In this document: positions 9,062 to 45,935 of the stretch, piece after piece | Layout: every line of letters starts with the position of its first letter | Numbering within the stretch: position 1 is the first letter of the stretch | Source: Solimonas flava DSM 18980 | Lineage (GTDB): Bacteria > Pseudomonadota > Gammaproteobacteria > Nevskiales > Nevskiaceae | NCBI RefSeq assembly: GCF_000426685.1 | Contig: NZ_AUFV01000001.1 | Location: forward strand, 372,001 to 436,000 | DNA: 64,000 bases | Direction: 5' to 3' | The notes under the pieces: generated by a model | What the model saw: the letters and a program-made list of their open reading frames with translations, nothing else | What the model was told of the DNA's origin: nothing | Database searches by the model: none | Translations under genes and position numbers: made by a program

Positions 9062-10552
9062 ATGTCCGTCGTCCTCATCGACGATGCCATGACCGGTCCG
9101 AAGCCTTCGTTCAACGTTTCGCCCCCGCTCGACTGCCGGGTCGACCTGCGCGCGTTTTCTGCCGCGGGCCGCGCCTGGCGCAGTGCCCTCGCGGCGATGC
9201 TGCCGCTGCTGGAGATCGCGGTGCTCGGCATCACCGCCTGGATCGCCGCGCTGCTCGTGCGCGAGTTCAATCCCGGCGGTTTCGACGCCGACATCGCCGG
9301 GCGCTACGGCCTGCTCGCCAGTTCGATGTCGCTGTTCGCGCCGTTCGTGCTGCACATCCGCAGGCCGGGCAGCGTGCGCGGTCGGGCCCGGGCCCTGCGC
9401 GAGCTGGCCGGTCCCTATGTGCTGTTCGGCGCGATCGCCACGCTCGCGCTCGTGCTCAACGGCGATGCCGACGGCGCGCCCGTGCAATGGCTCGGCCTCT
9501 GGCTGCTGGCCGGCTTCGCGCTGCTGCTGGTCTTGCGCAGCCTGGTGCTGCGGGCGCCGGCGCGTGAGGCCGTGGCCGTGGTCGGCGCCGGCCCGGCGAC
9601 CGACCGCCTGGTGCGGCACCTGCAGCGTCGCGACGGCCGCGACGTCGAGCTGATCGGCGTGTTCGACGACCGCTCGACGCGCGGCGGCAACGGCGCGGTC
9701 GTCCGCAGCGGCTCGGTCGCCAGCCTGATCGAACTCGGCCGCCACCGTCCGATCGATCTGGTGCTGATCGCGCTGCCGGACCACGCCGAGGGGCGCATCG
9801 TCGATCTGCTCAAGCGCCTCAAGTCGCTGGCCGTGTCCGTGGCCATGTGCCCCTGCGGCATCGAACTCGAAATGCCGCGCATGCCGGTCGAATACCTCGG
9901 CAACCAGATTCCGGTCACGCTGCTTGCCGAGCGGCCGATCCGCCGCGGCGGCGCGGTCGCCAAGATGCTGGAGGACTACCTGCTCGGCGGCCTGATCACG
10001 CTGGCGCTGCTGCCGCTGATGGCGCTGATCGCGCTGGCGATCCGCCTCGACAGCCCCGGCCCGGTGCTGTTCCGGCAGCGCCGCCATGCCTGGAACAACG
10101 GCGAGTTCGACGTCTTCAAGTTCCGCTCGATGCGCTGGAGCCCGAGGGCGAGCGGCCAGAATCTGCAGCAGACCGAGCGCGGCGATCCGCGCATCACCCG
10201 CGTCGGCCGCTTCCTGCGTCGCAGCAGCCTCGACGAGCTGCCGCAGCTGTTCAACGTTATGCGCGGCGAGATGTCGCTGGTCGGCCCGCGTCCGCACGCG
10301 GTCAACATGAAAACCGAGCAGCGGCTGTGCGAGGAGATCATCGAGACCTATGCACATCGCCATCGCGTCAAGCCCGGCCTGACCGGCCTGGCGCAGGTGC
10401 GCGGCTACCGCGGCGCGACGCACACGGCGGAGCAATTGCGCCTGCGCATTGAATCCGACCTCGAATACGTGGAGCATTGGTCCATCTGGCTGGACCTGAA
10501 GATTCTGGTCATGACGGCATGGACGGTGATCCGTGGCGAAAATGCGTACTAG
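9062..10552 (+). CDS. Polyprenyl glycosylphosphotransferase (WcaJ/EPS-initiating type)
   Basis: Initiates exopolysaccharide repeat units by moving a sugar-phosphate (usually glucose-1-P) from its UDP-sugar to undecaprenyl phosphate at the inner membrane. Four N-terminal membrane helices are followed by a Rossmann-like domain (VAVVGAGPATDRLVRHLQ; LIGVFDDRSTRG), then one more helix and the catalytic C-terminal domain with DSPGPVLFRQRRHAWN, FDVFKFRSMR, DPRITRVGRFLRRSSLDELP and SLVGPRP. About 496 residues from the ATG at 9062; an ATG at 9089 is equally possible. An ATG at 8906 would put the operator at 8977-9002 inside the gene and uses atypical codons. It overlaps the start of the next gene. Confidence 0.92.
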   Translation: MSVVLIDDAMTGPKPSFNVSPPLDCRVDLRAFSAAGRAWRSALAAMLPLLEIAVLGITAWIAALLVREFNPGGFDADIAGRYGLLASSMSLFAPFVLHIRRPGSVRGRARALRELAGPYVLFGAIATLALVLNGDADGAPVQWLGLWLLAGFALLLVLRSLVLRAPAREAVAVVGAGPATDRLVRHLQRRDGRDVELIGVFDDRSTRGGNGAVVRSGSVASLIELGRHRPIDLVLIALPDHAEGRIVDLLKRLKSLAVSVAMCPCGIELEMPRMPVEYLGNQIPVTLLAERPIRRGGAVAKMLEDYLLGGLITLALLPLMALIALAIRLDSPGPVLFRQRRHAWNNGEFDVFKFRSMRWSPRASGQNLQQTERGDPRITRVGRFLRRSSLDELPQLFNVMRGEMSLVGPRPHAVNMKTEQRLCEEIIETYAHRHRVKPGLTGLAQVRGYRGATHTAEQLRLRIESDLEYVEHWSIWLDLKILVMTAWTVIRGENAY

Positions 10553-11726: not shown

Positions 11727-11760
11727 GGTAGGCGGCACGGCATCGAGCGGGAGCCGCCGA

Positions 11761-11800
11761 GCGGCGAGGACCCTGGCGGGGCCTCGCCGCTTTATTTTTT
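11761..11800 (+). terminator. Rho-independent terminator after the EpsL-like gene
   Basis: Perfect 9-bp stem (GCGGCGAGG at 11761-11769 pairing with CCTCGCCGC at 11782-11790) followed directly by TTTATTTTTT. It closes the two-gene 9.06-11.73 kb transcript. Confidence 0.9.
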
Positions 11801-11821
11801 CGCGGCCGCCGTCGCGTCTCG

Positions 11822-12805
11822 CTACGCCGGCTGCCGCGCCAGCGGCACGACGCGCAGCGCCGCAGCGGTTTCGGCCAGGCCTTCGCCGAGCGGCTTCCAG
11901 CGCAGGCCGAGCTCGGCGGCGGCGCGGCGGCTGTCGAGACGGATGCGCTGCTGCCAGAGCGCCCGCATCGACGGCGTGATCGCCGGCGGCAGGCCGCCGG
12001 TGTCGAGGCCGAGCCGGCGCAGTCCCAGCTCGGCGAGTTTGAGCAGCGGCGCCAGCAGCTGCGTTTCGAGCGACAGGCGCCGCGCCGGGATGCGCGCGAC
12101 CGGCACGGCGCCGAGGCGGCGCGCGAATTCGACGAAGTACTCGTTCCAGGTCGGCAGGTCGGCGTCCGCGAGCGAGAGGTTGAAGGTCTTGCCGGCGGCG
12201 CTGTCGCGGTAGAGCGACTGGCGTATCGCCGCGACGACGTCGTCGACGTGCACGAGGTTGCCGTAGCCATCGCCGTCGGCACCGAGATCGCCGAGCCGGC
12301 GCTCGCGCAGCAACTGCGCGATGCGCACGCTCCACTGCACGCTGCCGGGGCCGTACACGCAGCCGGGTCTCAGCAGCACCGTGTTCGGACAATGCCGCAG
12401 GATGTCCTCGGCGTCGCACTTGGCGCGGCCGTAGCCGCTCTGCGGTGCGGTGACGCTCCATTCGTCGATCCGGCCGGTGCTTGCGCCGTAGACGGCCATC
12501 GAACTCAGATGCACGAGCCGCGGCGCGCGCGCCTGGCGCCGCAGCGCCGTGGCCAGCGCGTCGGCGTTGGCGCGGATGTCGGCGGGCCCGCCGGTCACGC
12601 AGTTGACGACGGCGTCGACGCCGCCGACCACCCCGGCCAGCGCGTCGGCATTGCGCGCGTCGAGCGCCAGCGTGCGGACGCCCGCCGCTGCGCGCGGACG
12701 GCGCGAGGCGACGATCACCTGCCAGCCGCCGGCGGCGGCGAGCGTGCGCGCGACCTGGCCGCCGATGTAGCCGCTGCCGCCGAGCACCAGGACCCGCGCG
12801 CTCAT
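11822..12805 (-). CDS. NAD-dependent sugar epimerase/dehydratase-family protein
   Basis: A 327-residue extended SDR: GGSGYIGG in the cofactor loop (9-16), HLSSMAVYG holding the Ser, and YGRAK as YxxxK, then LLRPGCVYGPGS and VHVDDVVAAI typical of nucleotide-sugar epimerases and reductases. Its start overlaps the stop of the GMC oxidoreductase (ATGA), so the two are one transcript. In this setting it probably modifies a sugar or sugar-derived precursor of the polymer, but it could also act on the oxidoreductase product. No membrane segment. Confidence 0.85.
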   Translation of the reverse strand: MSARVLVLGGSGYIGGQVARTLAAAGGWQVIVASRRPRAAAGVRTLALDARNADALAGVVGGVDAVVNCVTGGPADIRANADALATALRRQARAPRLVHLSSMAVYGASTGRIDEWSVTAPQSGYGRAKCDAEDILRHCPNTVLLRPGCVYGPGSVQWSVRIAQLLRERRLGDLGADGDGYGNLVHVDDVVAAIRQSLYRDSAAGKTFNLSLADADLPTWNEYFVEFARRLGAVPVARIPARRLSLETQLLAPLLKLAELGLRRLGLDTGGLPPAITPSMRALWQQRIRLDSRRAAAELGLRWKPLGEGLAETAAALRVVPLARQPA

Positions 12806-14499
12806 GCCGCCAGCTCGCGCGGCGGCGCCGCCGCGTGTGGCGCGCCGGCGGCCAGCCGCGCCTGCAGGTGCCCGGCCAGGCGCAGGCTCAGCGCGACGAT
12901 GGTCAGCGTCGGATTGGCCTGGCTGGAGGTCGGGAACACCGCCGCGCCGGCGACGAACAGGTTGTCGACGCCGTGGACCTGCAGGTTGGTGTCGACCACT
13001 CCCTCGCGCGGCGAGCGTCCCATGCGCGCCGTGCCGATATGGTGGCCGCCGTAGGCGCCGTAGCGCAGCATCTCGGCCTCGATCGCGTCCGGGTCGTAGT
13101 CGTAGCGACCGATGCCGCTGGCGCGCACGTCGGCGGCGAAGGTTGCCAGCGCCCGCGCGACGGTTTCGACGTCCTCGCGGCGATAGCGCCAGTCCAGGTG
13201 CAGGCGCCGCATGCCGAGCGCGTCGCGCTCGCTGCCGAGCGTCACGCGGCTGTCCGGATTCGGCAGCTGTTCGGCGTGGAAATCGAGACTGAAGCGCGGT
13301 CGTCGCGGCTCGATGATGATCGACGGGAACTTGCGCTCGGCGAGCTTGCGCTGCGTCAGCATCTGCCAGGCGAAGGCGAAGGCCTGCAGCGGATCGCGCA
13401 CCAGATTGCCCAGGTGCGCGAGCCAGCGGCCGATGCCGTGCGCATCGTCGCCGTGCAGGCGCTTGGCGTACTCGTAGGGAATGAACGGCTTGGCGAGGTA
13501 GAGCAGCGACAGCGCGCCGGAACCATGTGCCGGGTCGGTGATCCGCGGATGATGCAGGCGCGCGATGAAGTTGCCGACGCCGAGCCGGCGCTGCGCATCG
13601 GCGCGCAGCGCGAAGCGGCGCCGGCAGTAGATGCCGTCGTCGCTGACGTCATAGCCGTAGCGCACGGCGACGCCCGGCTCGAGCGCCAGCGTGCCGGTGG
13701 TGCCGGCGAGATGGCACATGTAGTAGCGGCCGACGAGATCGTGCGCGTTGCCGATGCCGGTCCGCTGCACCTCGTCGCTGGCCAGCAGCAGACGGGCGTT
13801 CTCCAGACCGCCGGCGGCGAGGATCACGCAGCGCGCGCGCACGCGCAGCGTCTTGCCGCCGAGGCTCGCGGCGCGCACCGCGCTGACGGCGCGGCCGTCG
13901 TCTCCGAGTTCCACGCCGGTGACGTTGGCGTGCAGCAGCACGCGCAGGTTCGCGGCGGCGTCGAGCCGCTGGCGATAGCGGCGACCGAAGTCGGTCGGAC
14001 AGCTGAAGCGTTCCAGGGTATCGGTCGAGAACGATGCGCTGTCGAAGCCGGCGAGCAGCGGCGGCAGGCCGCGCGGAAACGCCGACGCCGCGTCGAACGC
14101 GCACTCGCCCGCCTCGCACAGCTGCGTGGCGCGCGCGTAGTACGGCTGCAGCGTCTCGTGGCCGATCGGCCAGCCGCTGTGCGGCACGTAGTCGCGCACC
14201 TCGAAGTCGATCGGATCGAACGGCACGCAGCGGCCGCCCCAGGTCGTCGTCGAACCGCCGTAGCGGCGCTCGCGATAGCGATCGAGCGGCGGATGCAGGC
14301 GCGTGTCGGCGACCTCGCCGGCGTACAGCGCCTGGGTTTCGGGCTCGTGGCGGGCGCCGCCGGCCTCGATGACGATCACCTCGTGCCGCCCGTCCGCGAA
14401 CGGCAGCGCCAGCGCGATGCCGGCGGCGCCGCTGCCGACGATGCAGACGTCGGCTTGCAGCTCGGTGCCGGCCGGCAGTTCCAGGGCATCGATGATCAT
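12802..14499 (-). CDS. GMC-family FAD-dependent oxidoreductase
   Basis: About 565 residues. N-terminal FAD-binding motif DVCIVGSGAAGIALAL with the following acidic strand end (VIVIEAGG), GGSTTTWGGRC early in the chain, and the GMC C-terminal block with HHIGTARMG and LFVAGAAVFPTSSQANPTLT. Such enzymes oxidise alcohol groups of sugars or other alcohols; similar genes are common in polysaccharide loci. The start at 14499 (MIIDALEL) is preferred, though an ATG at 14520 cannot be excluded. It is transcribed divergently from the GT26 chimera across a 159-nt region with an operator-like palindrome and is coupled to the downstream epimerase. Confidence 0.88.
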   Translation of the reverse strand: MIIDALELPAGTELQADVCIVGSGAAGIALALPFADGRHEVIVIEAGGARHEPETQALYAGEVADTRLHPPLDRYRERRYGGSTTTWGGRCVPFDPIDFEVRDYVPHSGWPIGHETLQPYYARATQLCEAGECAFDAASAFPRGLPPLLAGFDSASFSTDTLERFSCPTDFGRRYRQRLDAAANLRVLLHANVTGVELGDDGRAVSAVRAASLGGKTLRVRARCVILAAGGLENARLLLASDEVQRTGIGNAHDLVGRYYMCHLAGTTGTLALEPGVAVRYGYDVSDDGIYCRRRFALRADAQRRLGVGNFIARLHHPRITDPAHGSGALSLLYLAKPFIPYEYAKRLHGDDAHGIGRWLAHLGNLVRDPLQAFAFAWQMLTQRKLAERKFPSIIIEPRRPRFSLDFHAEQLPNPDSRVTLGSERDALGMRRLHLDWRYRREDVETVARALATFAADVRASGIGRYDYDPDAIEAEMLRYGAYGGHHIGTARMGRSPREGVVDTNLQVHGVDNLFVAGAAVFPTSSQANPTLTIVALSLRLAGHLQARLAAGAPHAAAPPRELAA

Positions 14500-14565
14500 G
14501 AGTGGCAATCGCGCAGGCATCGCGACGGGAATGTCGCACGGTCTTTTTATGGCGCCGCACCCCGC

Positions 14566-14591
14566 CCGTCTGTGCGACGTCGAACACGTGT
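14566..14591. promoter_or_regulatory. LuxR-box-like operator in divergent GMC/GT26 promoter
   Basis: Arms CCGTCTGTGCGA and TCGAACACGTGT around CG. The core TGTGCGA-N2-TCGAACA matches the perfect copy at 24584-24609 at 13 of 14 core bases. It lies 66 nt from the oxidoreductase start and 67 nt from the GT26 chimera start. Confidence 0.6.
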
Positions 14592-14607
14592 GCTGCATCG
14601 CGCTTGC

Positions 14608-14621
14608 GTTCGCTAGCGAAC
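14608..14621. promoter_or_regulatory. Perfect 14-bp palindrome near the GT26 start
   Basis: GTTCGCTAGCGAAC, perfectly self-complementary, 37 nt before the ATG at 14659 and 16 nt from the LuxR-box-like element. It shares the GTTCG/CGAAC core with that element and may be a second binding site. Confidence 0.45.
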
Positions 14622-14658
14622 AGTCGCGCCGCGCGGTCGTGCATAGCCTCGCACCGAA

Positions 14659-16218
14659 ATGAGCATGGCGGTCGCCATGGGAGGCCCGATGGGCGGATTC
14701 GATCTATCTGGAGTGTCGGTGCCGGCAGCGCCGCCACGTGTCCGGACCCAGGCCTGGCGCCGTCGCCTGCGCCAGCTGCTGCCGCTGTGGGATTTGCTGC
14801 TGCTGCTGGCGGCCGCGCCGCTGGCGACCGCGATCGCTAGCGCGCTGGGCGCGAACCTGCCCGCGGTCTCGGGCTGGCCGGACTGGGAGCGCTGGGCGCT
14901 GCCGCTGGTGGCGCTCGGGCCGATACTGCTCTATCAGCCGCTCGATCGTCCGCCGCCGCCGCTGCGCGGCTTCGGCGCGCGCCTGCTGCTGTTCGTCGCG
15001 ATCGCCGCGGCCGCCGCCGCGCTCGCCGGTCCGCTGGTGCCGGGCGTGTGGCTGCTGGCCTGGCTGGCGCTGGTGGTCGCCGGCCTGTCGGGGCTGCGGC
15101 TGCTGATGCGGCGTCTGCGCGGCCGGCAGACGCTGGCGATCTACGGCGCCGGTCCCGAGACCGACCGGCTGGTACAGCAGCTGCGCCGCCAGGCCGGCGA
15201 CCGCATCGAGCTGCTCGGCGTCTTCGACGATCGCATGACGCGCGCGTCGCCGGCGCAGACGCCGGCGCGCGGCGGCCTCGTCGAACTCGCGCGGCTGGCG
15301 CAGCAGCGCCCGGTCGACTGGACACTGGTCTCGGTTCCCGAGTCGGCGCAGCAGCGCATCCAGCAGCTGCTGCCGCTGCTGCGCGGCATCTCGGACGCCG
15401 TCGCGCTGAGTCCGGCGCCGGCGCCGGCACGGCGTGAAGGCCTGCTCGCCGAGTCGCTGAAGGTGCGCATGCTGGCCGACGCCGAGCACACCGCCTGCGA
15501 TCTCGACGACTACGATCTGTCGCGCTTCATCGAGGTCGCGCGCGGCTTCGGCCAGGACGCCTATACGTATGTGGTGACGCCCAACGTCGATCATCTGATC
15601 CGCCTGCACGACGACGTGCGCTTTCGCGCGCTGTACGAAGACGCCGGCTACGTCCTGCTCGACAGCCGTTTCCTGTCGCACCTGCTGCACTTCACGCGCG
15701 GCGTGCGCCTGCCGGTCTGCGCCGGCAGCGATCTGACAGGCCGCCTGTTCGGCGAAGTGATCGCGGCCGATGACGGCCTGGTGCTGATCGGCGGTAGCGA
15801 CGCGCAGGCGGCGATGCTGCGCGAGCGCTACGGCCTGCGCCGGTTCGCCCATCACAATCCGCCGATGGGTTTCATCCGCGATCCGGGGGCGGTCGAGCGC
15901 TGCCTGTCGTTCATCGAGGCGCACAGTCCGTTCCGCTTCTGCCTGCTCGCGGTCGGTTCGCCGCAGCAGGAGATCATCGCGCGCGAGCTGCAGCGCCGCG
16001 GCAAGGCGCGCGGCATGGCGCTGTGCGTCGGCGCGTCGATCGATTTCCTCACCGGCGGCGAGCGTCGCGCGCCGGCCTGGATGCAGCGCGCCGGCGTCGA
16101 ATGGCTTTACCGCCTGATGCAGGCGCCGCGGCGCATGGCGCGCCGCTATCTGGTGCGCGGGCCGCGCGTGTTCAGCCTGCTGACGCAGACCGAGGTGCAG
16201 CTGCGCATGCACGCGTGA
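14659..16218 (+). CDS. GT26 (WecG/TagA/CpsF) glycosyltransferase fused to a WcaJ-type N-terminal region
   Basis: A 519-residue chimera. Residues ~40-155 hold four membrane helices, and ~155-240 a Rossmann-like domain (LAIYGAGPETDRLVQQLR; LLGVFDDRMT) matching the N-terminal half of the initiating transferase at 9062-10552. Where that enzyme has its catalytic domain, this one has a complete GT26 domain (~275-519): TPNVDHLIRLHDD, LIGGSDAQA, LAVGSPQQEIIA, GASIDFLTGGERRAPAWMQ and GVEWLYRL. GT26 enzymes add the second sugar to undecaprenyl-PP-linked sugar on the cytoplasmic face. The fused part probably anchors it beside the lipid acceptor. Transcribed divergently from the oxidoreductase. Confidence 0.88.
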   Translation: MSMAVAMGGPMGGFDLSGVSVPAAPPRVRTQAWRRRLRQLLPLWDLLLLLAAAPLATAIASALGANLPAVSGWPDWERWALPLVALGPILLYQPLDRPPPPLRGFGARLLLFVAIAAAAAALAGPLVPGVWLLAWLALVVAGLSGLRLLMRRLRGRQTLAIYGAGPETDRLVQQLRRQAGDRIELLGVFDDRMTRASPAQTPARGGLVELARLAQQRPVDWTLVSVPESAQQRIQQLLPLLRGISDAVALSPAPAPARREGLLAESLKVRMLADAEHTACDLDDYDLSRFIEVARGFGQDAYTYVVTPNVDHLIRLHDDVRFRALYEDAGYVLLDSRFLSHLLHFTRGVRLPVCAGSDLTGRLFGEVIAADDGLVLIGGSDAQAAMLRERYGLRRFAHHNPPMGFIRDPGAVERCLSFIEAHSPFRFCLLAVGSPQQEIIARELQRRGKARGMALCVGASIDFLTGGERRAPAWMQRAGVEWLYRLMQAPRRMARRYLVRGPRVFSLLTQTEVQLRMHA

Positions 16219-16251
16219 GTTGATGCCAGCCCGTCGCCGCCACGGTCACAG

Positions 16252-16289
16252 CGTGAAAAAAGAAAGGGCCGGACGACGGTCCGGCCCTT
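16252..16289 (-). terminator. Rho-independent terminator after the GH5 gene
   Basis: Perfect 11-bp stem (16264-16274 with 16279-16289, tetraloop GACG). Read on the minus strand it is followed by TTTCTTTTTT, so it terminates the GH5 transcript. The stem may also slow transcription arriving from the GT26 gene. Confidence 0.88.
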
Positions 16290-16342
16290 CCTGCCCCCCA
16301 AGCCCCGCCCGCAGGCGCGGACGGGATCCCTGGCTCAGCGCG

Positions 16343-19123
16343 TCATGGGGTGACGGTGAAAGCCGACGGCGTCCATGCCGCGTACTTCGGGTTGAACAGC
16401 GCGATCTGGGCGGTGCTGGCACCGGACGGAATCGTGACCTGCAGCTGCGTGTCGCTGACCACCAGGAAAGTCGCCGACGACGAGCCGACCGTGACCCGCG
16501 ACAGGCCGGTGAAGCCCGAGCCGGTGATCGTCACCACCGTGCCGGCCGCGCCGCTGCTTGGCGAGAAGGTCTGGATGTACGGCTGCGTGTACGCGGTCGA
16601 GCCGCCGTTGATCGTCACCGTGGCCCACGACGGCGAACCGAGCGTGGCGCCGCCGGAGGTCGTGCTCAGCTTCAGCGAGAACGACTTGCTGCCGGTGAAG
16701 GCCTTCAGCGTGCTGATCGGGATGCTGATGGTCTTGGCCGCGGTATCGCCCGAAGCCCAGCTCAGCGTGCCGCTGACCGCCGTGTAGTCGGTGCCGGCGA
16801 CGGCACTGCCGTCGACGGTCGCGTACTTCACGCTGACGGCGCCGCTGGAGCCGCTGGCGCGCGCGACGCTGAGCGTGGCGATGCCCGAGCTCTGCGCGAC
16901 GCTGTAGCTCGACGCACCGAGCGCGAGCGTGCCCGGCGCGGTCGTGGTCGACGACGACGAGGTCACGCTGAACGGGCTGCCCGACCAGGCGGCGTACTTC
17001 GGGTTGATCAGCGCGATCTGGCCGCTGCCGGCGCTGCCCGGCACGGTCAGCGTCAGCGAGGTGTCGCTGCTGACCTTGAAGGTCGCGGCGGTGCCGGCGA
17101 TGCTCACGCTGCTCAGGCCGGTGAAGCCCTTGCCGCTGATCGTCACCGTCGTGCCGCCCGGACCCGAGCTCGGCGTGAAGCTGGCGATGTACGGCTGCGT
17201 GTAGCTCGTCGTGCCGCTGCCGCTGCCGCTGCTGCTGCTGCCCGAGCCGTTGATCGTGACGCTGGCGCTGGCCGCGCCGAGCGTGGCGCCGCCGGACGCG
17301 CCGGACAGCGCGATGCTGAAGCTCTTGCTGCCGGTGTACGGCGTGGCGTTGCTGATCGCGACGCTGAACGACTTGCTCGCCGTCTCGCCCGAAGCCCAGC
17401 TCAGCGTGCCGCTGGCGGCCGTGTAGTCGCTGCCGGCAACGGCGGTGCCGTTGGCGGTGGCGTACTTGACGCTGACCGCACCGCTCGAACCGCCACTGCG
17501 CGCGACCGTGACGGTCAGCGAGCCGGCGCTCTGCGCGACGCTGTAGCTCGATGCCCCGAGCGCGAGGCTGCCGGCCGAGGCGACGACGCCCGAACCGTTG
17601 ATCGTCACCGTGGCGATGTTCGGCGTGGCGAGCGAGGCGCCGCTGCTGGCGCCGGACAGCGAAACGGTGAAGGTCTTGCTGCCGGTGAACGGCGTCGCGT
17701 TGCTGACCGGAATGGCGATGGTCTTAGCCGCCGTGTCGCCGGCGGCCCAGCTCAGCGTGCCGCTCTTCGGCGTGAAGTCGGTGCCGGACACCGCGGTGCC
17801 GCCGGCCGTCGCGTAGCTGACCGACACCGCGCCCGTGCCGCCGCTGCGGCTGACCGACAGGCTCACCGAACCGGCGCTCTGGCTGACGGTGTAGGCGCTC
17901 GCCGACAGCGCGATCGACGCCGTGCTGCCGCTCGTGCCCCACAGCTTCTGCAGCAGCGCCATCTTGTCGGTGCGCACGTTGAGGCTGTCGTCGAGGATGC
18001 CGCCGGTGTCGCCGCTGTTCGGCGTGTAGCACCAGTAGAAGCTGTCACGCATGCCCTTGCTCAGCATGTAGTCGACGAACGCGTTCTGCCAGGCGACGTC
18101 GCGCGAGTCGCCGCCGACGCCGTAGCGACCGCCCCACTCGCCGGGCACGACCGGATGCGACGGATAGAACTGGCCGAACAGCGTTTCCCAGTCGGCGGCG
18201 AGGTTGGCCGGGAAGTTGGCGGCGTTGAACGTCGACTTGACGTAGACGTCCGGGCCGTAGGTGTGCGGCGACAGCACCAGCTTGTCATTCGGGATGTTGA
18301 GCGGCTGGTAGGCCTGCGGCTGGAAGTCCTCGCCGTAGTTCATCGGGATGTTGGTGTTCTCGATGCCGTCCCAGTTGCCGTTGATGCCCTGCACGAAGAT
18401 CATCAGGTTCGGGTTGGCCGCGAGCACGCCGGCGGCGCCCTTCTCGGCGGCGTCCTTCCAGTAGTTCTTCGACTGCGTCATGTTGGCGTCGCCGGTGCTC
18501 CAGCGCACGACGCCGTTCGGCTCGTTGTAGATGTCGATCGCGAAGAAGTGCGGCAGGTTCGCGTAGCGCGCGGCGACGAACTTGAGATCGCGGATCCAGT
18601 TGTCGACGGTATAGGCCTGGCTGTTGTAGATCAGGCCGAAGTCGGCGCTGTTGTCGACGAACCAGGTCTGATATTGGCGGTCGTTCGAGACGCTGTGGAA
18701 ATCGAGCATGACGTAGAGGCCCTGACGGTCGGCCTCCGCCATCCACAGGTCCAGTACCTCCAGCGGCGTCTTGCCGAGCAGTTCCGGATTCTTGCCCGGG
18801 TCGACATAGCTCAGCTGGTCGACCGGCGTCGTCACGTACAGCGTGTCCGGCACGTACGGCAGACGCACGGCGTTGAAGCCGAGCGCCTTGATCTGCGCGA
18901 TCTGCTCCTTCCAGCCCATCGACCACAGGTACTGCGGCTGCAGGATGTTGGCATTGAAACCGTAGTGGCTGATGCCGCGGATCGGCACCTGCTGGCCGCT
19001 GGCGTCGTAGATCTTGCCCTGCTGCGCGTAATACCCGGCGGCGCTCGCGGCCGGCGCCGCGGCGGCGCCGACCAGCGTCGCAAGGAGCGCGCCCAGCGCC
19101 CGGAGTTTCAGGCTCATCTTCAT
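16343..19123 (-). CDS. Secreted multidomain GH5 glycosidase with Calx-beta and IPT/TIG repeats
   Basis: About 926 residues. A signal peptide ends near APAASAAGYYAQ. Residues ~35-385 are a GH5 (cellulase-like) domain with the acid/base Glu in IYNEPNG and the nucleophile Glu in VVPGEWGGRYG. Then come two Calx-beta-type repeats (each with SVxYATxxGTAVxGxDYT), a Ser/Gly linker, an IPT/TIG domain (TPSSGPGGTTVTISGKGFTG), a third Calx-beta and a second IPT/TIG. It probably trims or remodels the polymer made by this locus outside the cell. The start at 19123 is chosen for GAGG upstream; an ATG at 19135 also exists. Single-gene transcript with its own terminator. Confidence 0.92.
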   Translation of the reverse strand: MKMSLKLRALGALLATLVGAAAAPAASAAGYYAQQGKIYDASGQQVPIRGISHYGFNANILQPQYLWSMGWKEQIAQIKALGFNAVRLPYVPDTLYVTTPVDQLSYVDPGKNPELLGKTPLEVLDLWMAEADRQGLYVMLDFHSVSNDRQYQTWFVDNSADFGLIYNSQAYTVDNWIRDLKFVAARYANLPHFFAIDIYNEPNGVVRWSTGDANMTQSKNYWKDAAEKGAAGVLAANPNLMIFVQGINGNWDGIENTNIPMNYGEDFQPQAYQPLNIPNDKLVLSPHTYGPDVYVKSTFNAANFPANLAADWETLFGQFYPSHPVVPGEWGGRYGVGGDSRDVAWQNAFVDYMLSKGMRDSFYWCYTPNSGDTGGILDDSLNVRTDKMALLQKLWGTSGSTASIALSASAYTVSQSAGSVSLSVSRSGGTGAVSVSYATAGGTAVSGTDFTPKSGTLSWAAGDTAAKTIAIPVSNATPFTGSKTFTVSLSGASSGASLATPNIATVTINGSGVVASAGSLALGASSYSVAQSAGSLTVTVARSGGSSGAVSVKYATANGTAVAGSDYTAASGTLSWASGETASKSFSVAISNATPYTGSKSFSIALSGASGGATLGAASASVTINGSGSSSSGSGSGTTSYTQPYIASFTPSSGPGGTTVTISGKGFTGLSSVSIAGTAATFKVSSDTSLTLTVPGSAGSGQIALINPKYAAWSGSPFSVTSSSSTTTAPGTLALGASSYSVAQSSGIATLSVARASGSSGAVSVKYATVDGSAVAGTDYTAVSGTLSWASGDTAAKTISIPISTLKAFTGSKSFSLKLSTTSGGATLGSPSWATVTINGGSTAYTQPYIQTFSPSSGAAGTVVTITGSGFTGLSRVTVGSSSATFLVVSDTQLQVTIPSGASTAQIALFNPKYAAWTPSAFTVTP

Positions 19124-19701: not shown

Positions 19702-20469
19702 TCATGGCAGGGCGCCGGCCGGCGCGGTGACGGCGGTCGCGACCCAGCGCCCCGCGTAGCAGTAACGGCCCTGCCAGACGAGACCCGGCGCGGCCGCGGC
19801 GGCGCCGTTGCGCGGCACGACACGGAAGCCGCCGGCCGCCATCGCCGCGGTCTCGATCTCGACGACCACGTCGTGAAATTCGAGCCATTGCCGGGTCAGC
19901 GCGTACTGGCACTTGTAGAACGCTTCCTTGGCGCTGAAGGTCAGCGCCGCGAGCCGCTGGCGCTGCGCGAGCGGCTGCCGCGCGAGCTGGCGCAGCTCCT
20001 CCGCCGTGAGCAGCTCCGGCCAGACGACCGGCGAAACGTCGGCGATGACTTCGAGGTCGATGCCGAGCGAACGCAGCAGCCGCTCCGGCGCAACCACGGC
20101 CGCGCACAGGCCGTCGGTATGGCTGATGCTGCCGGCGAACCCGCTCGGCCAGCGCGGCCGGCGGTCGGCCTGCGCCGGCAGCTCGCGCGGCGCCACGCCG
20201 AGACGGCGCAGCGCATGGCGCGCGCAGGCGCGGCCGGCAGCAAACTCATGCAGGCGCTTGCTGCTGACGGTGCCGAGCGCGGCGCGCTCCATCGGCAGCA
20301 GCCAGGCCGGATCGCCGGGCGTCCGGCACTCGGCGGCGGCGACCAGGCCGTCGAACAGTCCGGCGAACAGCGCCGAATCGCGAACCCCGTCATCGACGGC
20401 GGCGACGGCATCCGGCTCCGGCACCGTGCCGGATGGCGCACCGCCCTCGCCGGCCGTGTCCTGCGTCAC
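19702..20469 (-). CDS. 4'-phosphopantetheinyl transferase (Sfp/EntD type)
   Basis: A 255-residue PPTase that would convert apo carrier domains of the local NRPS/PKS proteins to holo form using CoA. Motifs: SISHTDGLCAAVVA, GIDLEVI (Mg2+-binding Asp/Glu) and FSAKEAFYKCQY (the WxxKEAxxK-type motif). Its GTG start overlaps the TGA of the NRPS (GTGA), so the two are translationally coupled. It is the only PPTase here and presumably serves the C-A-T-TE protein, the A-T protein and the megasynthase. The EntD-like SHTDG form suggests a dedicated secondary-metabolism enzyme rather than AcpS. Confidence 0.93.
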   Translation of the reverse strand: MTQDTAGEGGAPSGTVPEPDAVAAVDDGVRDSALFAGLFDGLVAAAECRTPGDPAWLLPMERAALGTVSSKRLHEFAAGRACARHALRRLGVAPRELPAQADRRPRWPSGFAGSISHTDGLCAAVVAPERLLRSLGIDLEVIADVSPVVWPELLTAEELRQLARQPLAQRQRLAALTFSAKEAFYKCQYALTRQWLEFHDVVVEIETAAMAAGGFRVVPRNGAAAAAPGLVWQGRYCYAGRWVATAVTAPAGALP

Positions 20470-23400
20470 GTCGGCGTCGTGGCCGGAACGTCGATATGCG
20501 CTGCCATCTGCCGCGCGCCCGGGTCCTGGAACATCGTGAAGTGGTCGCCGTCGATCACCGCGACCTCGACGCCGTCGCTGGCGAACGCGCCCCAGCCCAT
20601 GCCGTGATCGAGGAAGCGCCCACCCGGCTGGCGCCGCGAGCGGAACAGCTGGATGCGGCCCTTGAAGCGGCCCGGCTCGTAGCCGGTCGCGGCGACGCGC
20701 AAATGCTCGAGCAGCCAGCGATCGTAATCCTCCGGCGACTGCCGGCGGCGCGACAGCAGGTCGTGGTCGGCATGGTCCGACCACAGCGACTGCAGGCGCT
20801 TGGCGAAACCGCGATTGGCGATGAAGCTGCGCCACGACTGGCGCCCGTGCCAGAGATCGGCCAGATCGAGTCCGATCAGCTGCAGGCGGTGCGAAGTTTC
20901 GGCCAGCGTCCGGCGCAGCCAGGACATGCGCCGCACGTAGCCCGGCACGTAGCCGTCGATGATGACGACCTGCTCGACGCGCTCGCCGGCCGCCTGCAAC
21001 TGGCAGCCGATCTCGAACGCGAGCGCGCCGGCGATGCACCAGCCGAGCAAGCGGTACGGTCCGTGCGGCTGCTCGCGGCGGATCAGCTCGACGTAGCCGG
21101 CGGCGATATCGACGAAGTCGCACGGCATCGCGGCCGGATCGCTGCCCGGATCGAACAGCTGCAGGCTGGTGAACGGCTGCGCGTCGCCGAGCCGCCGCGA
21201 CAGCAGGAAGTAGATGCCGGTGTTGTTGACCGCCATCAGCGGCGTGCGGCTGCCGTCGCTGCGCAGGCGCAGCACCGGCCGGAAGTCGTAATTGCGCTGG
21301 CCGCTGAGATCGACCAGCGGTGCCAGCTGCGCAATCGTCGGCGCATTGAACAGCGTCGACAGCGTGAGGCGCGCGCCGAACTCGGTCTCGACCTGCGCCA
21401 GCATGCGCGCGGCGAGCAGCGAGTGGCCGCCGAGTTCGAAGAAGTTCGCGCCGCGGCCGATGCCGCGGCTGCCGAGCAGGCCCTCCCAGATCAGGGCCAG
21501 CTTCTGCTCGACCGCCGTCTGCGGCGGCCCACCGTCGTCGTGCTCGCCTTCGCGCAGTGCCGGCGGCGGCAATGCGCGCACGTCGACCTTGCCGTTCTGG
21601 TTGCGCGGCAGCGCGTCGACGATGGTGATTGCCGCCGGCCGCATGTACGCCGGCAACGACTGCGCCGCTTCGGCAACCAGCTCGTCGCTCAGATCGACGG
21701 CATTGCGGCCGGGATCGCGCAGGCTGACGTAGGCCCACAGCGCGGCGTCGCCGTGCCCGTCGCGACCGACGATCGCGCAGGCTTCGCCGACCGCCGGATG
21801 GCGCAGCAGCACCGACTCGATCTCGCCGAGCTCGATGCGGAAGCCGCGCAGCTTGACCTGCGAATCGCTGCGGCCGATGAATTCCATGCGCTCGCGCCCG
21901 CGCCAGCGCACGATGTCGCCGCTGCGGTACATGCGCGCGCCGGGCGCCGCCGCGAACGGGTCCGGCACGAAGCGCGACTGCGTGAACTCCGGCCGGCCGA
22001 CGTAGCCGAGTGCGAGCTGCTCGCCGCCGATATAAAGCTCGCCCGGTGCGCCCACCGGCACCGGCTCGCCGTGCGCGTCGAGCACGTAGAAGCGCAGGTT
22101 CGGCAGCGGACCGCCGAGCGGCACGCTGGCGTAGCGGTGCAGCATCTCCGGCTCGATGCGCAGCACCGAGGCGTAGATCGTCGTCTCGGTCGGACCGTAG
22201 ACGTGCCACAGCTCGCTGCCGGTCGCCAGGATGCGCTCGGCCAGCTCGCGCGGCGTCTTCTCGCCGCCGCACATCGCCTTCAGCCGCGGCCGGCCGTCCC
22301 AGCCGGCGGCGAGCAGGAACTGCCAGGTGATCGGCGTCGCGAACATCACAGTCGCACCGTGCTCGCGCAGCAGCGCCAGCAGCGCCGCGCCGTCGACGAC
22401 GTCGCGCTCGGTCGCCAGCACCAGACGCGCGCCGCAGGACAGCGTCGCGAACACTTCCAGGCCCGAGATGTCGAACGCCACCGAGCTGACCGACATGAAC
22501 ACGTCCTGCGCCGTGATGCCCGGCTGCGCGCGCACCGCCCACAGCAGGTTGGCCAGCGCGCGGTGCGGCACCATTACGCCTTTCGGCTGACCGGTCGAGC
22601 CCGAGGTGTAGATGATGTACGCGAGATCCAGCGGCCGCGTCGCGCGCGGCGGCGACAGCGCCGGATGCGCGGCGATCACGGCGGCGTCCTCGTCGATCAG
22701 CAGCAGCGGTACGTCGAGCGCCGCCAGCGGCGCGCGCAGCGAGGCGCGCGCGACCACGGCGGCGAGCCCGGCATCGCCGCCGATATAGGCCAGGCGCTCC
22801 GGCGGATTGCCGGTGTCGAGCGGTACGTAGGCGCTGCCGGCCTTGAGGATCGCCAGCAACGTCACGATCAGTTCCGGCGAGCGTTTCAGGAACACGCCGA
22901 CGCGACGGCCGTCGCCGTAGCCGCGCGCGCGCAGCTCATGCGCGAGGCGGTTGGCGGCGGCGTCGAGTTCGGCGTAGCGCAGTGACTGTCCGTCGCAGAC
23001 CACGGCGATCGCATCCGGCGCCTCGGCGACGCGCGTCTCGAACAGATCGACGACGTTGCGCTCGAGCGGGAACTCGACCTCGGTGAGATTCCAGTCCAGC
23101 GTCAGGCGGCGGCGCTCGGCGGCGTCGATCAGCGGCAGCCGCGAGATCGCCTGTCGCGGGTTCGTCGCGATCGCGCCGAGCAGGTGTTCGAGCTGGGCGA
23201 GCAGACCGTTGACGGTGTCCGCGTCGAACAGATCGGTATTGAAGTCGCAGGACAGGCGCCAGCCGTCCGGGCGTTCGACCGCGAAGACATTGAGATCGTG
23301 CAGCGCGCCGGCCGAGACCGAGGGCATGTCGATCAGCTGGAAGCGTCCGTAGCGGCGGTTGGCGATGAACGAACGCTGCATCACGAAGTTGATCGAGAAC

Positions 23401-24506: not shown

Positions 24507-24583
24507 TCGCTGTCCGGCACCTGCCGCTCCCGTGGAAGACCCCTGTGTCCTCGTGGTGCGCAAATTAAAATTGCGGGACAGGC

Positions 24584-24609: not shown

Positions 24610-24669
24610 CGGAGCGGCCCGGCTCGAAGAATCGCCCCGTCGTCGTCACTGATCACGCCGGAGCTTTCC

Positions 24670-33812: not shown

Positions 33813-35113
33813 CGGCGCCCGCATCCGGCCTGCAGCGCCTGCTGCATCTGCTCGGCAGCGCCGTCGTCGGCCAGGCGCTGCTGTCGGCGGCGAACCTCGT
33901 CGTCGGCATCCTGCTGCTGCGCTACGCGCACGAGCAGCAGTACGGCCGCTACGTCCTGGTCAGTACCGCGATCCTGCTGCTCGCCGCGCTGCAGGGCGCC
34001 TACATCGGCCCGCCGCTGGTGCAGCGTCTCGCCGAGCTGTCGCGCGCGGCGCGCAACGCGCTGGCCGCCGGCGCCTGGCGCGAGCAGCGGCGGCTGATCG
34101 CCGCGCTCGCGCTGCCGTTCGCGGCGCTGCTGGCGCTGGCGTCCGGCGCTTCGGCGACGATGGCGACGCTGCTGCCGGTGACGCTCGCCGGCCTGCTCGC
34201 CGGCGCGCTGTCGCTGCGCCGCGGCCACTACCGCTTCCTGCTGCAGGCGCATCGCCATCCGTGGCCGCTGCTCGCCGGCGATGCGCTGTACGCGCTGCTG
34301 CTGGTCGCCGGCGTCGCGCTCGCCTGCCGCCTGCCGGAGGCGGCGACCGGCGCCGCTCTCGCCGTCGCACTGGCGGCACTGCTGTCGAGCCAGCTGCACG
34401 CCCGCGCCCTGCGTCGCCTCGAAGGCACGGCGCCGCAGGCGACGCACGGCGTGCTGCGCGCGCTGGCGCCGCTCGGCCTGTGGTCGGCGGCCGGCGCGGC
34501 GATCCACTGGACCTTCGGCCAGGGCTACAACTATCTGGTCGCCGGCCTGCTCGACGTCGGCGCCGTCGCCGCGATCGCCGGCACGCGTCTGGTGCTGATG
34601 CCGGTGAACCTGCTCAGCACCGGCATCGGCTCGGCGCTGCTGCCGGTGACCGCGGTCTGGCTGCAGCGTCAGTCGCCGCGCGCGGTGCTGCAGCGGCTCG
34701 GCCTGATCGCCGCGGTGATCGGCCTGCTCGCGCTCGCCTATTGCGCGCTGCTCTGGCAGTGCCGCGACTGGCTGTACGCGGTCGTGCTGCGCAAGTCCTT
34801 CGCGCAGCGCGACACGCTGCTCGCGCTGTGGACGGCCGCCGTCGTGGTCGCCGCGGCGCGCGATCCGCTGCTGTACCTGCTGGTCGCCCGCCAGCGCCTG
34901 CGCGCGCTGACGCTGCTGACCGGCGTGTCGGCGCTCGCCGCGATCGGCGCGATCGTCGCCGCCGTGCCGCATTACGGCGCGCCGGGCGCGGTCGCCGGCG
35001 TGCTGATCGGCGAATGCACCAGCCTCGCCGGCGTGCTGCTGCTGAGCTGGCGCGAAACGCGCGGCGCGCGCGCGCCGGCAGTGGCCACCGCGCCCCTGGA
35101 GATGACGACATGA
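33809..35113 (+). CDS. Wzx-type polysaccharide flippase
   Basis: A 434-residue protein with about 12 hydrophobic segments, resembling the MOP/Wzx oligosaccharide flippase family: LLGSAVVGQALLSAANLVVG at the first helix and YGRYVLVSTAILLLAALQG next. With the initiating transferase, glycosyltransferases, Wzy and Wza/Wzc homologues it completes a Wzx/Wzy-dependent pathway, moving the undecaprenyl-PP-linked repeat to the periplasm. Its ATG overlaps the preceding stop, and its stop overlaps the A-T NRPS start. Confidence 0.85.
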   Translation: MTAPASGLQRLLHLLGSAVVGQALLSAANLVVGILLLRYAHEQQYGRYVLVSTAILLLAALQGAYIGPPLVQRLAELSRAARNALAAGAWREQRRLIAALALPFAALLALASGASATMATLLPVTLAGLLAGALSLRRGHYRFLLQAHRHPWPLLAGDALYALLLVAGVALACRLPEAATGAALAVALAALLSSQLHARALRRLEGTAPQATHGVLRALAPLGLWSAAGAAIHWTFGQGYNYLVAGLLDVGAVAAIAGTRLVLMPVNLLSTGIGSALLPVTAVWLQRQSPRAVLQRLGLIAAVIGLLALAYCALLWQCRDWLYAVVLRKSFAQRDTLLALWTAAVVVAAARDPLLYLLVARQRLRALTLLTGVSALAAIGAIVAAVPHYGAPGAVAGVLIGECTSLAGVLLLSWRETRGARAPAVATAPLEMTT

Positions 35114-36951
35114 AAACCCCGCTGCCCGAAGCCCTGCGTCGCGACGTGATCTCGGTGTTCCGCGACCGCGTGCGCGAGAACCCGGCGGCGATCGCGCTGC
35201 ACGCCGAACGGCCGATGAGCTACGCCGAACTCGATGCGCGCGCGGCGGCGATCGCCGCCGCGCTGCAGGCGCGCGGCATCGGCCGCGGCGCGATCGTCGG
35301 CCTCTGCGTGCAGCGCTCGGCCGACGCCATCGCCGCGCTGCTCGGCGTGCTGCGCTGCGGCGCCGCCTACCTGCCGTTCGATGTCGGCTATCCGCCGGCG
35401 CTGCTGCAACGCATCCACGCCGACGCGCGGCCGGCGCTGATGCTGGTCGATGCCGCCTCGGAGCGGCTCGCGTTCTGGACCGGCGAGCCCTTGCGGCTGG
35501 CGTCGATCGACGCCCCGGCGGCAGCGCCGGCCGACGTCGCCATCGGCGTCGACGATCCGGCCTACGTGATGTACACCTCGGGCTCGACCGGCACGCCCAA
35601 GGGCGTCGTCGTGCCGCATCGCGGCATCGTGCGCCTGGTGCGCGAGACCGACTACGCCGACTTCTCGCGCGATCAGGTCTTCCTGCAATGGTCGCCGCTC
35701 GCCTTCGACGCCTCGACCTTCGAGATCTGGGGCGCGCTGCTCAACGGCGCGTCGCTGGCGATCGCCGATCCGGCCGCCGCCTCGCTCGACGAGCTGGCGA
35801 TGACGATCCTGCATCATCGCGTCAGCACGCTGTGGCTCACCGCCGGCGTCTTCCACCTGATGGTCGAGCACCATCCGCACGCGCTGCGGCCGCTGCGCCA
35901 GCTGCTCGCCGGCGGCGACGTGCTGTCGCCCGCGCACGTGCGCCGCGCGCTCGATGCGGCACCGGCCTGCACGCTGATCAACGGCTACGGCCCGACCGAG
36001 AACACCACCTTCACCTGCTGCTACCGCGTGCCGCGTGATTTCGCCGACGGCCCGCTGCCGATCGGCCGGCCGATCGCGCAGACGACCGTGCACGTGCTCG
36101 ACGAGGATGGCCGGCCGGTGCCGCCGGGCGAGCCCGGCGAGCTCTACGCCGGCGGCGCCGGCGTCGCGCTCGGCTATCTGAACCGTGCCGATCTCAACGC
36201 CGAGCGCTTCATCGCCAACCCGTTCGGGCCCGGCACGCTGTACCGCAGCGGCGACCGCGTGCGCCTGCGCGAGGACGGCGTCTACGAATTCCTCGGCCGC
36301 GCCGACCGCCAGGTCAAGATCAACGGCAAGCGCGTCGAGCTCGACGACATCGAGGCGGCGCTGCGCCGCACCGGCCTGGTCTCGGATGCGGCTGTCGTCG
36401 CCCGCGAACTCGGCCCCGCGCAGAAGCGTCTCGAAGCCTACGTCAGCGGCGGCGCCGCCGAACCGCAGGCGCTGCGCGCCGCGCTGCGCGCGCAGCTGCC
36501 GGACTACATGCAGCCGGCACTGCTGACGCGCCTCGACGCGCTGCCGCTGACGCCGACCGGCAAGATCGACCGCCGCGCGCTGCTGGCGCTGGCGCCGCCG
36601 ACACCGGCGCCTGCCGCCGCGGCGCGGCCGGGCGACGAAGTCGAGGCGGCGCTGCTGGGTCTCTGGCGCCGCGTGCTGCAGCGTCCGCAGCTCGGGCTCG
36701 ACGACAACTTCTTCGATCTCGGCGGCAGCTCGCTGCAGCTGCTCGAACTGCATGCCGCGCTCCGCGCCGGGCTCAAGCCCGACGCCGCGCTCGTCGACCT
36801 GTTCCGCCACACCCGGATTCGCCAGCAGGCGCAATGGATCCGCGGCGGCACGACGGCCGCCGGCCACGCCGATCCGGCGCTGCGCGAACGGCAGCGGCGT
36901 GCGGCGCTGGCGGCGGCGAAGACCCGCGCCCGCGGCCCGGCCGCGCGCTAG
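35110..36951 (+). CDS. Stand-alone NRPS adenylation-thiolation protein
   Basis: A 613-residue A-T didomain. Adenylation ~20-500 with YTSGSTGTPKG, FDASTFEIWGALLNGA, NGYGPTENTTF and the late PTGKIDRRAL lysine; carrier domain ~515-585 with FFDLGGSSLQLLEL, the phosphopantetheine Ser near 540; a basic tail of ~25 residues follows. There is no condensation or release domain. It activates an amino acid (identity not assigned) and holds it as a thioester, like a DltA-DltC pair in one chain. It is the last gene of the EPS operon, fused to it by an ATGA overlap with the flippase, so it is expressed with polymer synthesis and may supply an aminoacyl decoration. Confidence 0.93.
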   Translation: MKTPLPEALRRDVISVFRDRVRENPAAIALHAERPMSYAELDARAAAIAAALQARGIGRGAIVGLCVQRSADAIAALLGVLRCGAAYLPFDVGYPPALLQRIHADARPALMLVDAASERLAFWTGEPLRLASIDAPAAAPADVAIGVDDPAYVMYTSGSTGTPKGVVVPHRGIVRLVRETDYADFSRDQVFLQWSPLAFDASTFEIWGALLNGASLAIADPAAASLDELAMTILHHRVSTLWLTAGVFHLMVEHHPHALRPLRQLLAGGDVLSPAHVRRALDAAPACTLINGYGPTENTTFTCCYRVPRDFADGPLPIGRPIAQTTVHVLDEDGRPVPPGEPGELYAGGAGVALGYLNRADLNAERFIANPFGPGTLYRSGDRVRLREDGVYEFLGRADRQVKINGKRVELDDIEAALRRTGLVSDAAVVARELGPAQKRLEAYVSGGAAEPQALRAALRAQLPDYMQPALLTRLDALPLTPTGKIDRRALLALAPPTPAPAAAARPGDEVEAALLGLWRRVLQRPQLGLDDNFFDLGGSSLQLLELHAALRAGLKPDAALVDLFRHTRIRQQAQWIRGGTTAAGHADPALRERQRRAALAAAKTRARGPAAR

Positions 36952-37586: not shown

Positions 37587-37967
37587 TCAGCGCGCGCGGC
37601 GGTCGCCGCGCACGCCGGCGGCGCCGGGGGTCGCGGCTCGCGCGCGACGTTCGTGCGCCGGCCGCGTACGCCAGCGCCGCCAGGCGCGCAGGGTGCTGGC
37701 CAGCAGGCTCGGCTGCCAGGTGCGCACGCACAGCGTCGCGCCGTCGAAGCTGAGGCGGTATTCGACGATGCCGCCGTGGCGCTCGCGCTCGAGCAGGCCG
37801 TCGTCGACCATTTCCTGCAGCACCAGCGGCAGGTCGCTGGCGCGCAGCCCGGTCTGCCGCCATTCGCGTTCGAGGGCTTCCTCGCCGAGCGGCTCGGGCT
37901 GCGCGCCGCCGATGTCGCGGAACAGGCGGATCAGGGCGAGGCGCCGCGTCTGGCGGTCGACGATCAT
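37587..37967 (-). CDS. Small winged-helix-like protein of unknown function
   Basis: A 126-residue protein beginning MIVDRQTRRLALIRLFRDIGG. The pattern of helices followed by LLERERHGGIVEYRLSFDGA suggests a winged-helix fold with its wing hairpin; a hydrophobic and basic tail follows (LRAWRRWRTRP). It lies 60 nt downstream of the megasynthase on the same strand and is probably cotranscribed. It may be a pathway-associated regulator, but the family is not recognised. The ribosome site is weak. Confidence 0.62.
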   Translation of the reverse strand: MIVDRQTRRLALIRLFRDIGGAQPEPLGEEALEREWRQTGLRASDLPLVLQEMVDDGLLERERHGGIVEYRLSFDGATLCVRTWQPSLLASTLRAWRRWRTRPAHERRARAATPGAAGVRGDRRAR

Positions 37968-38027
37968 CGCGCCGCTGCCTGCCGCCGCGGGGCGACGCGC
38001 CGGCGAGCGGTCGGCGGCGGCCGGCGC

Positions 38028-45935
<7,908 letters not shown>

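What the first reader, a model, noticed from the sequence alone, without database searches (positions are those of the whole stretch)
9062..45935. Exopolysaccharide locus fused at operon level with NRPS and PKS-AMT-NRPS enzymes
A full Wzx/Wzy-type set (initiating transferase, GTs, flippase, polymerase, Wza/Wzc/EpsG) is interleaved with a PPTase, a C-A-T-TE NRPS, a stand-alone A-T protein coupled by an ATGA overlap to the flippase, and a KS-AT-ACP-AMT-C-A-PCP megasynthase. The A-T gene in the polymer operon is hard to explain unless the polymer or its lipid carrier receives an aminoacyl, peptidyl or beta-amino lipopeptide group. Acyltransferase-3 is a candidate transferase. I know of no well-described pathway with this gene set.
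Basis: partly seen in the sequence, partly recalled or inferred. Interest (0 to 1): 0.85.

Follow-up and report, generated by a model that had tools for sequence, protein, structure and literature searches.

The report
Peptide assembly line within polysaccharide locus
In Solimonas bacteria, and in relatives from other families, the genes for an exported sugar polymer are intermixed with genes for a three-protein line that builds a small unusual peptide; the two keep turning up together, which suggests that the peptide or one of its amino acids is attached to, or travels with, the polymer.

Summary
A Wza/Wzz/EpsG/Wzy-type EPS locus in a Solimonas genome is interleaved with a PPTase, a C-A-T-TE NRPS, an A-T protein (ATGA overlap with the gene before it) and a KS-AT-ACP-AMT-C-A-PCP megasynthase. 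Relatives carry A-T fused to KS-AT-AMT or directly beside it.

The wider idea gains support. Of 16 Nevskiales genomes with this beta-amino PKS-NRPS, 11 have it beside EPS or other glycan-export genes, including complete syntenic EPS loci in four genomes of another family. One more is inferred across a contig gap; in S. soli it is split. The C-A-T-TE gene diverges from wza in 8 of its 10 occurrences, and its tree matches the EPS tree. Where the upstream line is missing, its C domain decays while A(Gly-type)-T-TE stays constrained.

The coupling is not obligatory: EPS loci without NRPS and unlinked lines exist. Covalent decoration of the polymer is plausible but unproven; a co-regulated free peptide is the main rival. 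No description of such a pathway was found in the open-access library.

The parts
8906..10552 (+). WcaJ-type initiating sugar phosphotransferase (start may be 9197)
   Evidence: Bac_transf 2.8e-62; TIGR03025 above cut-off
10542..11726 (+). Outer-membrane beta-barrel protein of the EPS locus
   Evidence: BBP2_2 2e-7
11822..12805 (-). NAD-dependent epimerase/dehydratase
   Evidence: Epimerase 3.6e-23
12802..14598 (-). GMC-type FAD oxidoreductase; in the order, E<1e-200 only in the six genomes with A-T, megasynthase and NRPS plus G019 and G026
14659..16218 (+). WecG/TagA/CpsF glycosyltransferase with an N-terminal CoA_binding_3 region
   Evidence: 2.3e-32
16343..19123 (-). Secreted GH5 + three Calx-beta + TIG protein (probable EPS glycosidase)
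19702..20469 (-). 4'-phosphopantetheinyl transferase
   Evidence: 4PPT_N 9.2e-23
20466..24440 (-). NRPS C-A-T-TE; TE nucleophile is Cys (GWCIAG); A code DILFMGVIY, Gly-type in five other genomes
24670..25566 (+). Wza/EpsE export protein, divergent from the NRPS
25566..26987 (+). Wzz/EpsF chain-length determinant
26984..27721 (+). EpsG tyrosine kinase
27739..29163 (+). Wzy_C polymerase
   Evidence: 1.1e-14
29160..30266 (+). Acyltransferase-3
   Evidence: 1.4e-25
30263..31711 (+). HAD phosphatase with C-terminal membrane domain of unassigned family
   Evidence: HAD 3.8e-11; no PDB match
31708..32631 (+). GT2 glycosyltransferase
   Evidence: 1e-17
32631..33812 (+). GT2 glycosyltransferase with TM segments
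33809..35113 (+). Polytopic membrane protein, tentative Wzx flippase
   Evidence: about 11 TM segments; no family match
35110..36951 (+). A-T protein: detached loading module of the megasynthase, Val-type code DAFWLGGTF
37587..37967 (-). Small protein of unknown function that travels with the megasynthase in S. soli
38028..45911 (-). Megasynthase KS-AT(malonyl)-ACP-AMT-C-A(Gly code DILQLGLIW)-PCP
46065..47727 (-). Two Crp-type regulators upstream of the megasynthase; they move with it in S. soli

Best explanation
The locus is one functional unit: an EPS export/polymerisation system with its own peptide assembly line. Line: A-T (Val-type) loads an amino acid; the KS of the megasynthase extends it with malonate; AMT turns the beta-keto group into a beta-amine; its C-A-PCP adds Gly; the C-A-T-TE NRPS (or, in relatives, two alpha/beta hydrolases) adds or offloads. 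The PPTase activates the carriers. SHOWN by sequence: parts, order, fusions, conserved linkage, domain constraint. INFERRED: that carrier-bound aminoacyl or peptidyl groups are handed, by the Cys-type TE or the hydrolase pair, onto the EPS repeat unit (or its lipid-linked precursor) before export, much as DltA/DltC or AlmE/AlmF feed an acceptor. The acceptor and the product structure (about Val-derived beta,gamma-diamino acid - Gly - X) are predictions only.
For: Loader: A-T fused to KS-AT-AMT in G020, G055, G326, G079, G082, G075 and adjacent in G028, G029, G037. Linkage: PKS-AMT in 16 of 85 Nevskiales genomes. G000, G010, G037 and, in another family, G075, G079, G082, G084 have it in full EPS loci; G048, G061, G028, G029 beside glycan assembly genes; G020 by contig ends. 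Also G128 in another order. NRPS divergent from wza in 8 of 10 occurrences. NRPS and EPS-core trees have the same clades. In G017 and G032 this NRPS holds the only C domain in the genome; C motifs are lost there but Gly-type A, T and Cys-TE are intact. For the G032-G038 pair dN is 0.45 in C against 0.14 in A and 0.15 in TE, so A-T-TE is selected at the EPS locus without the peptide line.
Against: Not obligatory: EPS loci without NRPS (G016, G019, G026); lines with no EPS genes nearby (G055, G057, several outside the order); the S. soli megasynthase is on another contig. No transferase specific to the pair was identified; AT3 does not track the NRPS. Nothing shows attachment. On the AMT tree linked and unlinked lines are mixed (5 changes).
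Confidence: 0.45

Rival explanations
1. Free product. The three-protein line makes a small secreted beta-amino (lipo)peptide, for example a surfactant, protease inhibitor or signal, that acts at the cell surface or in the biofilm. It is linked to EPS genes only because both are used and regulated together; TE or hydrolases release it by hydrolysis.
For: The domain order is that of free beta-amino lipopeptide lines (microginin, puwainaphycin type; PMC4219810). Crp-type regulators travel with the megasynthase. Unlinked lines exist. In family f6 the loader carries an N-terminal C domain, as lipopeptide starters do.
Against: Does not explain why the C-A-T-TE NRPS is kept at wza, with C decayed and A-T-TE constrained, in genomes with no upstream line, nor the linkage in several families with different EPS gene sets.
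Confidence: 0.35
2. Two separate functions share one NRPS. Its A(Gly)-T-TE part glycylates the EPS and is the true EPS gene; the A-T/megasynthase line makes an unrelated peptide and uses only C and TE of the same protein.
For: Complementary decay: C decays but A-T-TE is constrained when the line is absent (G032/G038, G017); A decays (identity 0.46, dN 0.51) but C, T and TE are constrained when the line sits away from the EPS core (G028/G029).
Against: Both halves are intact in Solimonas and G037; the line itself is EPS-linked in f6, where this NRPS is absent. C in G028/G029 has HQ instead of HH, so its activity is unclear.
Confidence: 0.12
3. One reading: the A-T protein alone charges an aminoacyl group that AT3 or another enzyme puts on the polymer, independent of the megasynthase.
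For: Position in the EPS operon with ATGA overlap.
Against: Loader fusions and adjacency; in Nevskiales close A-T relatives are found only in genomes with the megasynthase; AT3 occurs without it.
Confidence: 0.05

Closest known systems
beta-amino fatty acid PKS-NRPS lines (iturin/mycosubtilin, microginin, puwainaphycin)
   Same: Loader - KS-AT-ACP-AMT - C-A-PCP logic; malonyl AT; class III aminotransferase
   Different: Loader is an amino-acid A domain (Val-type code), not a fatty-acyl-AMP ligase; only about three modules; sits in an EPS locus
D-alanylation (DltABCD) and V. cholerae lipid A glycylation (AlmEFG)
   Same: A domain plus carrier protein feeds an aminoacyl group to an envelope glycan (AlmEFG: PMC4790380); inferred parallel for the Gly-type A-T-TE
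   Different: No DltB/AlmG-type transferase seen; the carrier is inside a C-A-T-TE protein with a Cys thioesterase
Exosortase-A (XrtA) EPS loci with acyl-CoA ligase and hydrolases 1/2 (TIGR03098/03100/03101)
   Same: EPS locus with an adenylating enzyme; relatives' lines end in two hydrolases that match TIGR03101/03100 below cut-off
   Different: A-T scores 219 bits against a cut-off of 592 for TIGR03098; the Solimonas locus has no such hydrolases
Cys-nucleophile NRPS thioesterases (ObiF, SulM)
   Same: Cys in the GxCxG position (PMC11298585; here)
   Different: Nearest solved TEs by sequence are another NRPS TE (7dxo) and NocB, not ObiF/SulM; position of the Asp not determined
EpsB-L/methanolan-type Wzx/Wzy EPS loci
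   Same: WcaJ, EpsE/F/G, Wzy, BBP2 barrel, WecG-type GT
   Different: No PKS/NRPS genes recalled in the described loci (from memory)

Membership tests
Wzx/Wzy-dependent EPS locus | Polyprenyl-P hexose-1-P transferase | tested here: met
   PF02397 and TIGR03025
Wzx/Wzy-dependent EPS locus | Wzy polymerase and Wza/Wzz/tyrosine kinase | tested here: met
   PF04932, Poly_export, Wzz, EpsG
Wzx/Wzy-dependent EPS locus | Wzx flippase | tested here: inconclusive
   No Pfam/PDB/profile match, low-confidence model; about 11 TM segments
AMT-type PKS-NRPS line | KS-AT-ACP-AMT followed by C-A-PCP with intact motifs | tested here: met
AMT-type PKS-NRPS line (iturin/puwainaphycin) | Fatty-acyl-AMP ligase loader | tested here: not met
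   Loader is TIGR01733 amino-acid adenylation, 410 bits, code DAFWLGGTF
Dlt/AlmEFG-like aminoacyl transfer | Adenylating enzyme plus carrier protein at an envelope-glycan locus | tested here: met
Dlt/AlmEFG-like aminoacyl transfer | Dedicated transferase and aminoacylated glycan | not testable with these tools
   Needs chemistry; AT3 does not track the NRPS
XrtA EPS system | ligase_PEP_1 (TIGR03098) above cut-off | tested here: not met
   218.7 bits against 592.35
XrtA EPS system | Exosortase and PEP-CTERM proteins | not tested
   No exosortase among the window proteins scanned; genome not searched

The most novel reading that the evidence does not exclude
A bacterial exopolysaccharide whose repeat units (or lipid-linked precursors) are acylated by a dedicated hybrid PKS-NRPS line with a beta,gamma-diamino acid-Gly peptide, or with Gly alone in relatives that lost the line: an NRPS/PKS-decorated polysaccharide class spread over several gammaproteobacterial families.
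Probability: 0.35. Interest if true: 0.88.

Novelty: new variant of a known kind. Interest (0 to 1): 0.66.

Why it matters
How amino acids and short peptides get onto bacterial exopolysaccharides is largely unknown. Here a complete PKS-NRPS line is repeatedly housed with EPS export and polymerisation genes in several gammaproteobacterial families, and type strains that can be ordered (S. variicoloris DSM 15731, S. soli DSM 21787) carry it. If the product is on the polymer, it defines a route from nonribosomal assembly lines to polysaccharide decoration; if it is free, it is an undescribed family of EPS-associated beta-amino peptides.

Tried and rejected
AlphaFold2 of the putative Wzx and of the HAD protein from three-sequence alignments gave pLDDT 35-39, so no fold search was made. 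hhalign of the putative Wzx against a true Polysacc_synt family found nothing. Paper searches for Solimonas EPS/NRPS, EPS-NRPS hybrids and the specificity codes found nothing relevant; the 2006 exosortase paper has no passage on ligase or hydrolases. AT3 as the peptide transferase: rejected as specific because it occurs without the NRPS. A check of the Val/Gly codes against linear gramicidin synthetase was not informative for Val; the code assignments rest on the published Stachelhaus table from memory. One search with the whole megasynthase failed and was replaced by a 601-aa segment. G039 was first counted as lacking the upstream line, but its fragmented assembly has another NRPS piece, so only G017 and G032 are used as firm cases. 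The first gene calls for some loci failed and were redone; G448 could not be called well.

Full report
WHERE IT IS. The window lies in a 4.46-Mb genome. Exceptions: the flippase has no family match, and the HAD protein's membrane half is unassigned. Start-stop overlaps tie Wza-Wzz-EpsG and then Wzy-AT3-HAD-GT2a-GT2b-'Wzx'-A-T. The PPTase-NRPS pair is divergent from wza, and the megasynthase is convergent.

THE A-T PROTEIN IS A LOADER. S. soli, 69% identical in A-T, keeps the EPS genes, A-T, NRPS and PPTase together but has the megasynthase, with its two Crp regulators and the small gene, on another contig. In three genomes of another genus (G028, G029, G037) A-T lies directly next to the megasynthase on the same strand. 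In G020 one 3172-aa protein reads A-T-KS-AT-AMT-C-A-T, and in G055 one of 2143 aa reads A-T-KS-AT-AMT. The same fusion is seen in G326 and G079 and, with a C domain in front, in G082 and G075. The simplest reading is that the window's A-T is the first module of the same line, split off and placed at the end of the EPS operon. Its C-terminal tail is basic in all six orthologues (+4 to +6), which would suit a docking tail; this is only suggestive.

PREDICTED CHEMISTRY. Specificity-code residues: A-T DAFWLGGTF in all six (Val-type by the Stachelhaus table, from memory); megasynthase DILQLGLIW or DILQLGMIW (Gly); NRPS DILQLGLIW, DILQMGMIW or DIMQLGLIW (Gly-type) in G037, G039, G017, G032, G038, but DILFMGVIY in the three Solimonas. 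The AT has the malonyl motif HAFH; KS Cys, AMT Lys region, C HHxxxDG and carrier Ser are present. The TE nucleophile is Cys (GWCxAG) in all ten NRPS orthologues, as in the unusual ObiF and SulM thioesterases (PMC11298585). Expected product: Val-derived 3,4-diamino acid - Gly - X. This is a prediction.

THE LINK TO EPS IS CONSERVED BUT NOT OBLIGATORY. A close homologue of the second GT2 occurs in 20 of 85 genomes of the order. Several EPS loci have no NRPS or PKS gene (G016, G019, G026). The C-A-T-TE NRPS has ten orthologues, all in genomes with that EPS core. In eight it is divergent from wza (Solimonas x3, G037, G039, G017, G032; G038). A hand estimate for scale: the 20 genomes hold 16 separate C-domain loci, eight within about 10 kb of the EPS core, where random placement within 25 kb would give about 0.2. 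The genomes are related, so this is no formal test. The NRPS tree and the EPS-core tree show the same clades.

The PKS-AMT segment is in 16 of 85 genomes. Four genomes of another family (G075, G079, G082, G084) carry it in a complete and syntenic EPS locus with two hydrolases, a PPTase, a flippase, BBP2, WcaJ, Wzy, EpsG, Wzz and Wza. G061 has it with hydrolases, PPTase and a relative of the window's 'Wzx' (29%). G048 has A-T beside EpsF/EpsG-like genes and the megasynthase beside a polymerase-like gene and a GT. In G028/G029 it is in a second glycan locus with UbiA-HAD, a DprE1-like oxidase, AT3, GMC, GtrA and a Polysacc_synt flippase. G020 is inferred from two contig ends. In S. soli it is split. 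Unlinked: G055 and G057; G043 is too short to tell. Outside the order, G128 has it in a polysaccharide cluster, while six others show no EPS assembly genes in the 20-40 kb fetched (G342). On the AMT tree the linked lines fall in several places, so either the link is old and often lost or it arose repeatedly.

COMPLEMENTARY DOMAIN DECAY. In genomes with the NRPS at wza but no megasynthase (G017, G032 firmly; G038 and G039 less so, being fragmented) the C-domain motif is lost (HQLVCDR, truncated, NAMICDR, HRMVCDG), while A, T and TE motifs are intact. In G017 and G032 it is the only C domain in the genome. Between G032 and G038 dN is 0.45 in C but 0.14 in A and 0.15 in TE. Between G028 and G029, where the line is away from the EPS core, A is relaxed (dN 0.51, motifs lost) and C (dN 0.09), T and TE are constrained. 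So A(Gly)-T-TE is under selection at the EPS locus without any upstream peptide, and C-T-TE is under selection with the line. This is the strongest hint that carrier-bound amino acid is used by the EPS system.

MECHANISM. Committed reading: the line's carrier-bound aminoacyl or peptidyl group is transferred by the Cys-TE (or the hydrolase pair in relatives) to the EPS repeat unit or its lipid-linked precursor. Shown: parts, order, loader identity, linkage, constraint. Inferred: acceptor, transfer, product. Main rival: a free beta-amino peptide that is co-regulated with EPS.

COMPARISON. It works like an AMT-type PKS-NRPS line, but with an amino-acid loader, and it parallels DltA/DltC and AlmE/AlmF (glycine on lipid A by ester linkage, PMC4790380) in feeding an envelope glycan. 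It is not filed as any of these. The pair of hydrolases in relatives resembles the exosortase-A EPS hydrolases below cut-off, a lead that EPS loci more widely use adenylation/carrier/hydrolase modules.

LIMITS. Genomes are one per species and mostly unnamed, several are fragmented; code assignments are predictions; no chemistry exists; absence from the paper library is not absence from the literature.

Noticed in passing
window 479-1669 and 1-3200: SIR2-like domain protein (PF13289) in a stretch of clearly lower G+C (58% against about 71%), followed by a 464-aa protein without a Pfam match: possible mobile or defence island.
   Followed up: no
window 4162-8116 and 47872-63939: The EPS/NRPS locus is flanked by a stress-type cluster: several universal stress proteins, a beta-CASP/thymidine phosphorylase fusion, PRPP synthetase, phosphofructokinase, alcohol dehydrogenases and a cation P-type ATPase; two proteins with similar N-termini (MKDxLVVxYSRSG) lie at its two ends (6226-6840, 62720-63322).
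   Followed up: no
L116:11017-12569, L119:9831-11407, L122:1253-2994, L155, L158, L161: Many PKS-AMT lines of gammaproteobacteria end in two alpha/beta hydrolases related to exosortase-A system hydrolases 2 and 1 (TIGR03101/03100, below cut-off) instead of a TE.
   Followed up: partly
L046:8227-11710 (G029), same in G028: UbiA-HAD, DprE1-like FAD oxidase and SDR in a row near the A-T/megasynthase/NRPS operon: looks like a polyprenyl-phospho-arabinose route in a gammaproteobacterium.
   Followed up: partly
L134-L135 (G342 contig): Two PKS-AMT lines on one short contig, with several unannotated proteins of similar N-terminal pattern between and beside them.
   Followed up: no
window 16343-19123: Secreted GH5 with three Calx-beta and two TIG domains next to the NRPS; homologues recur at other EPS loci (G032, G038).
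   Followed up: no
window 20466-24440, TE part: Cys instead of Ser as TE nucleophile, invariant in ten orthologues.
   Followed up: partly
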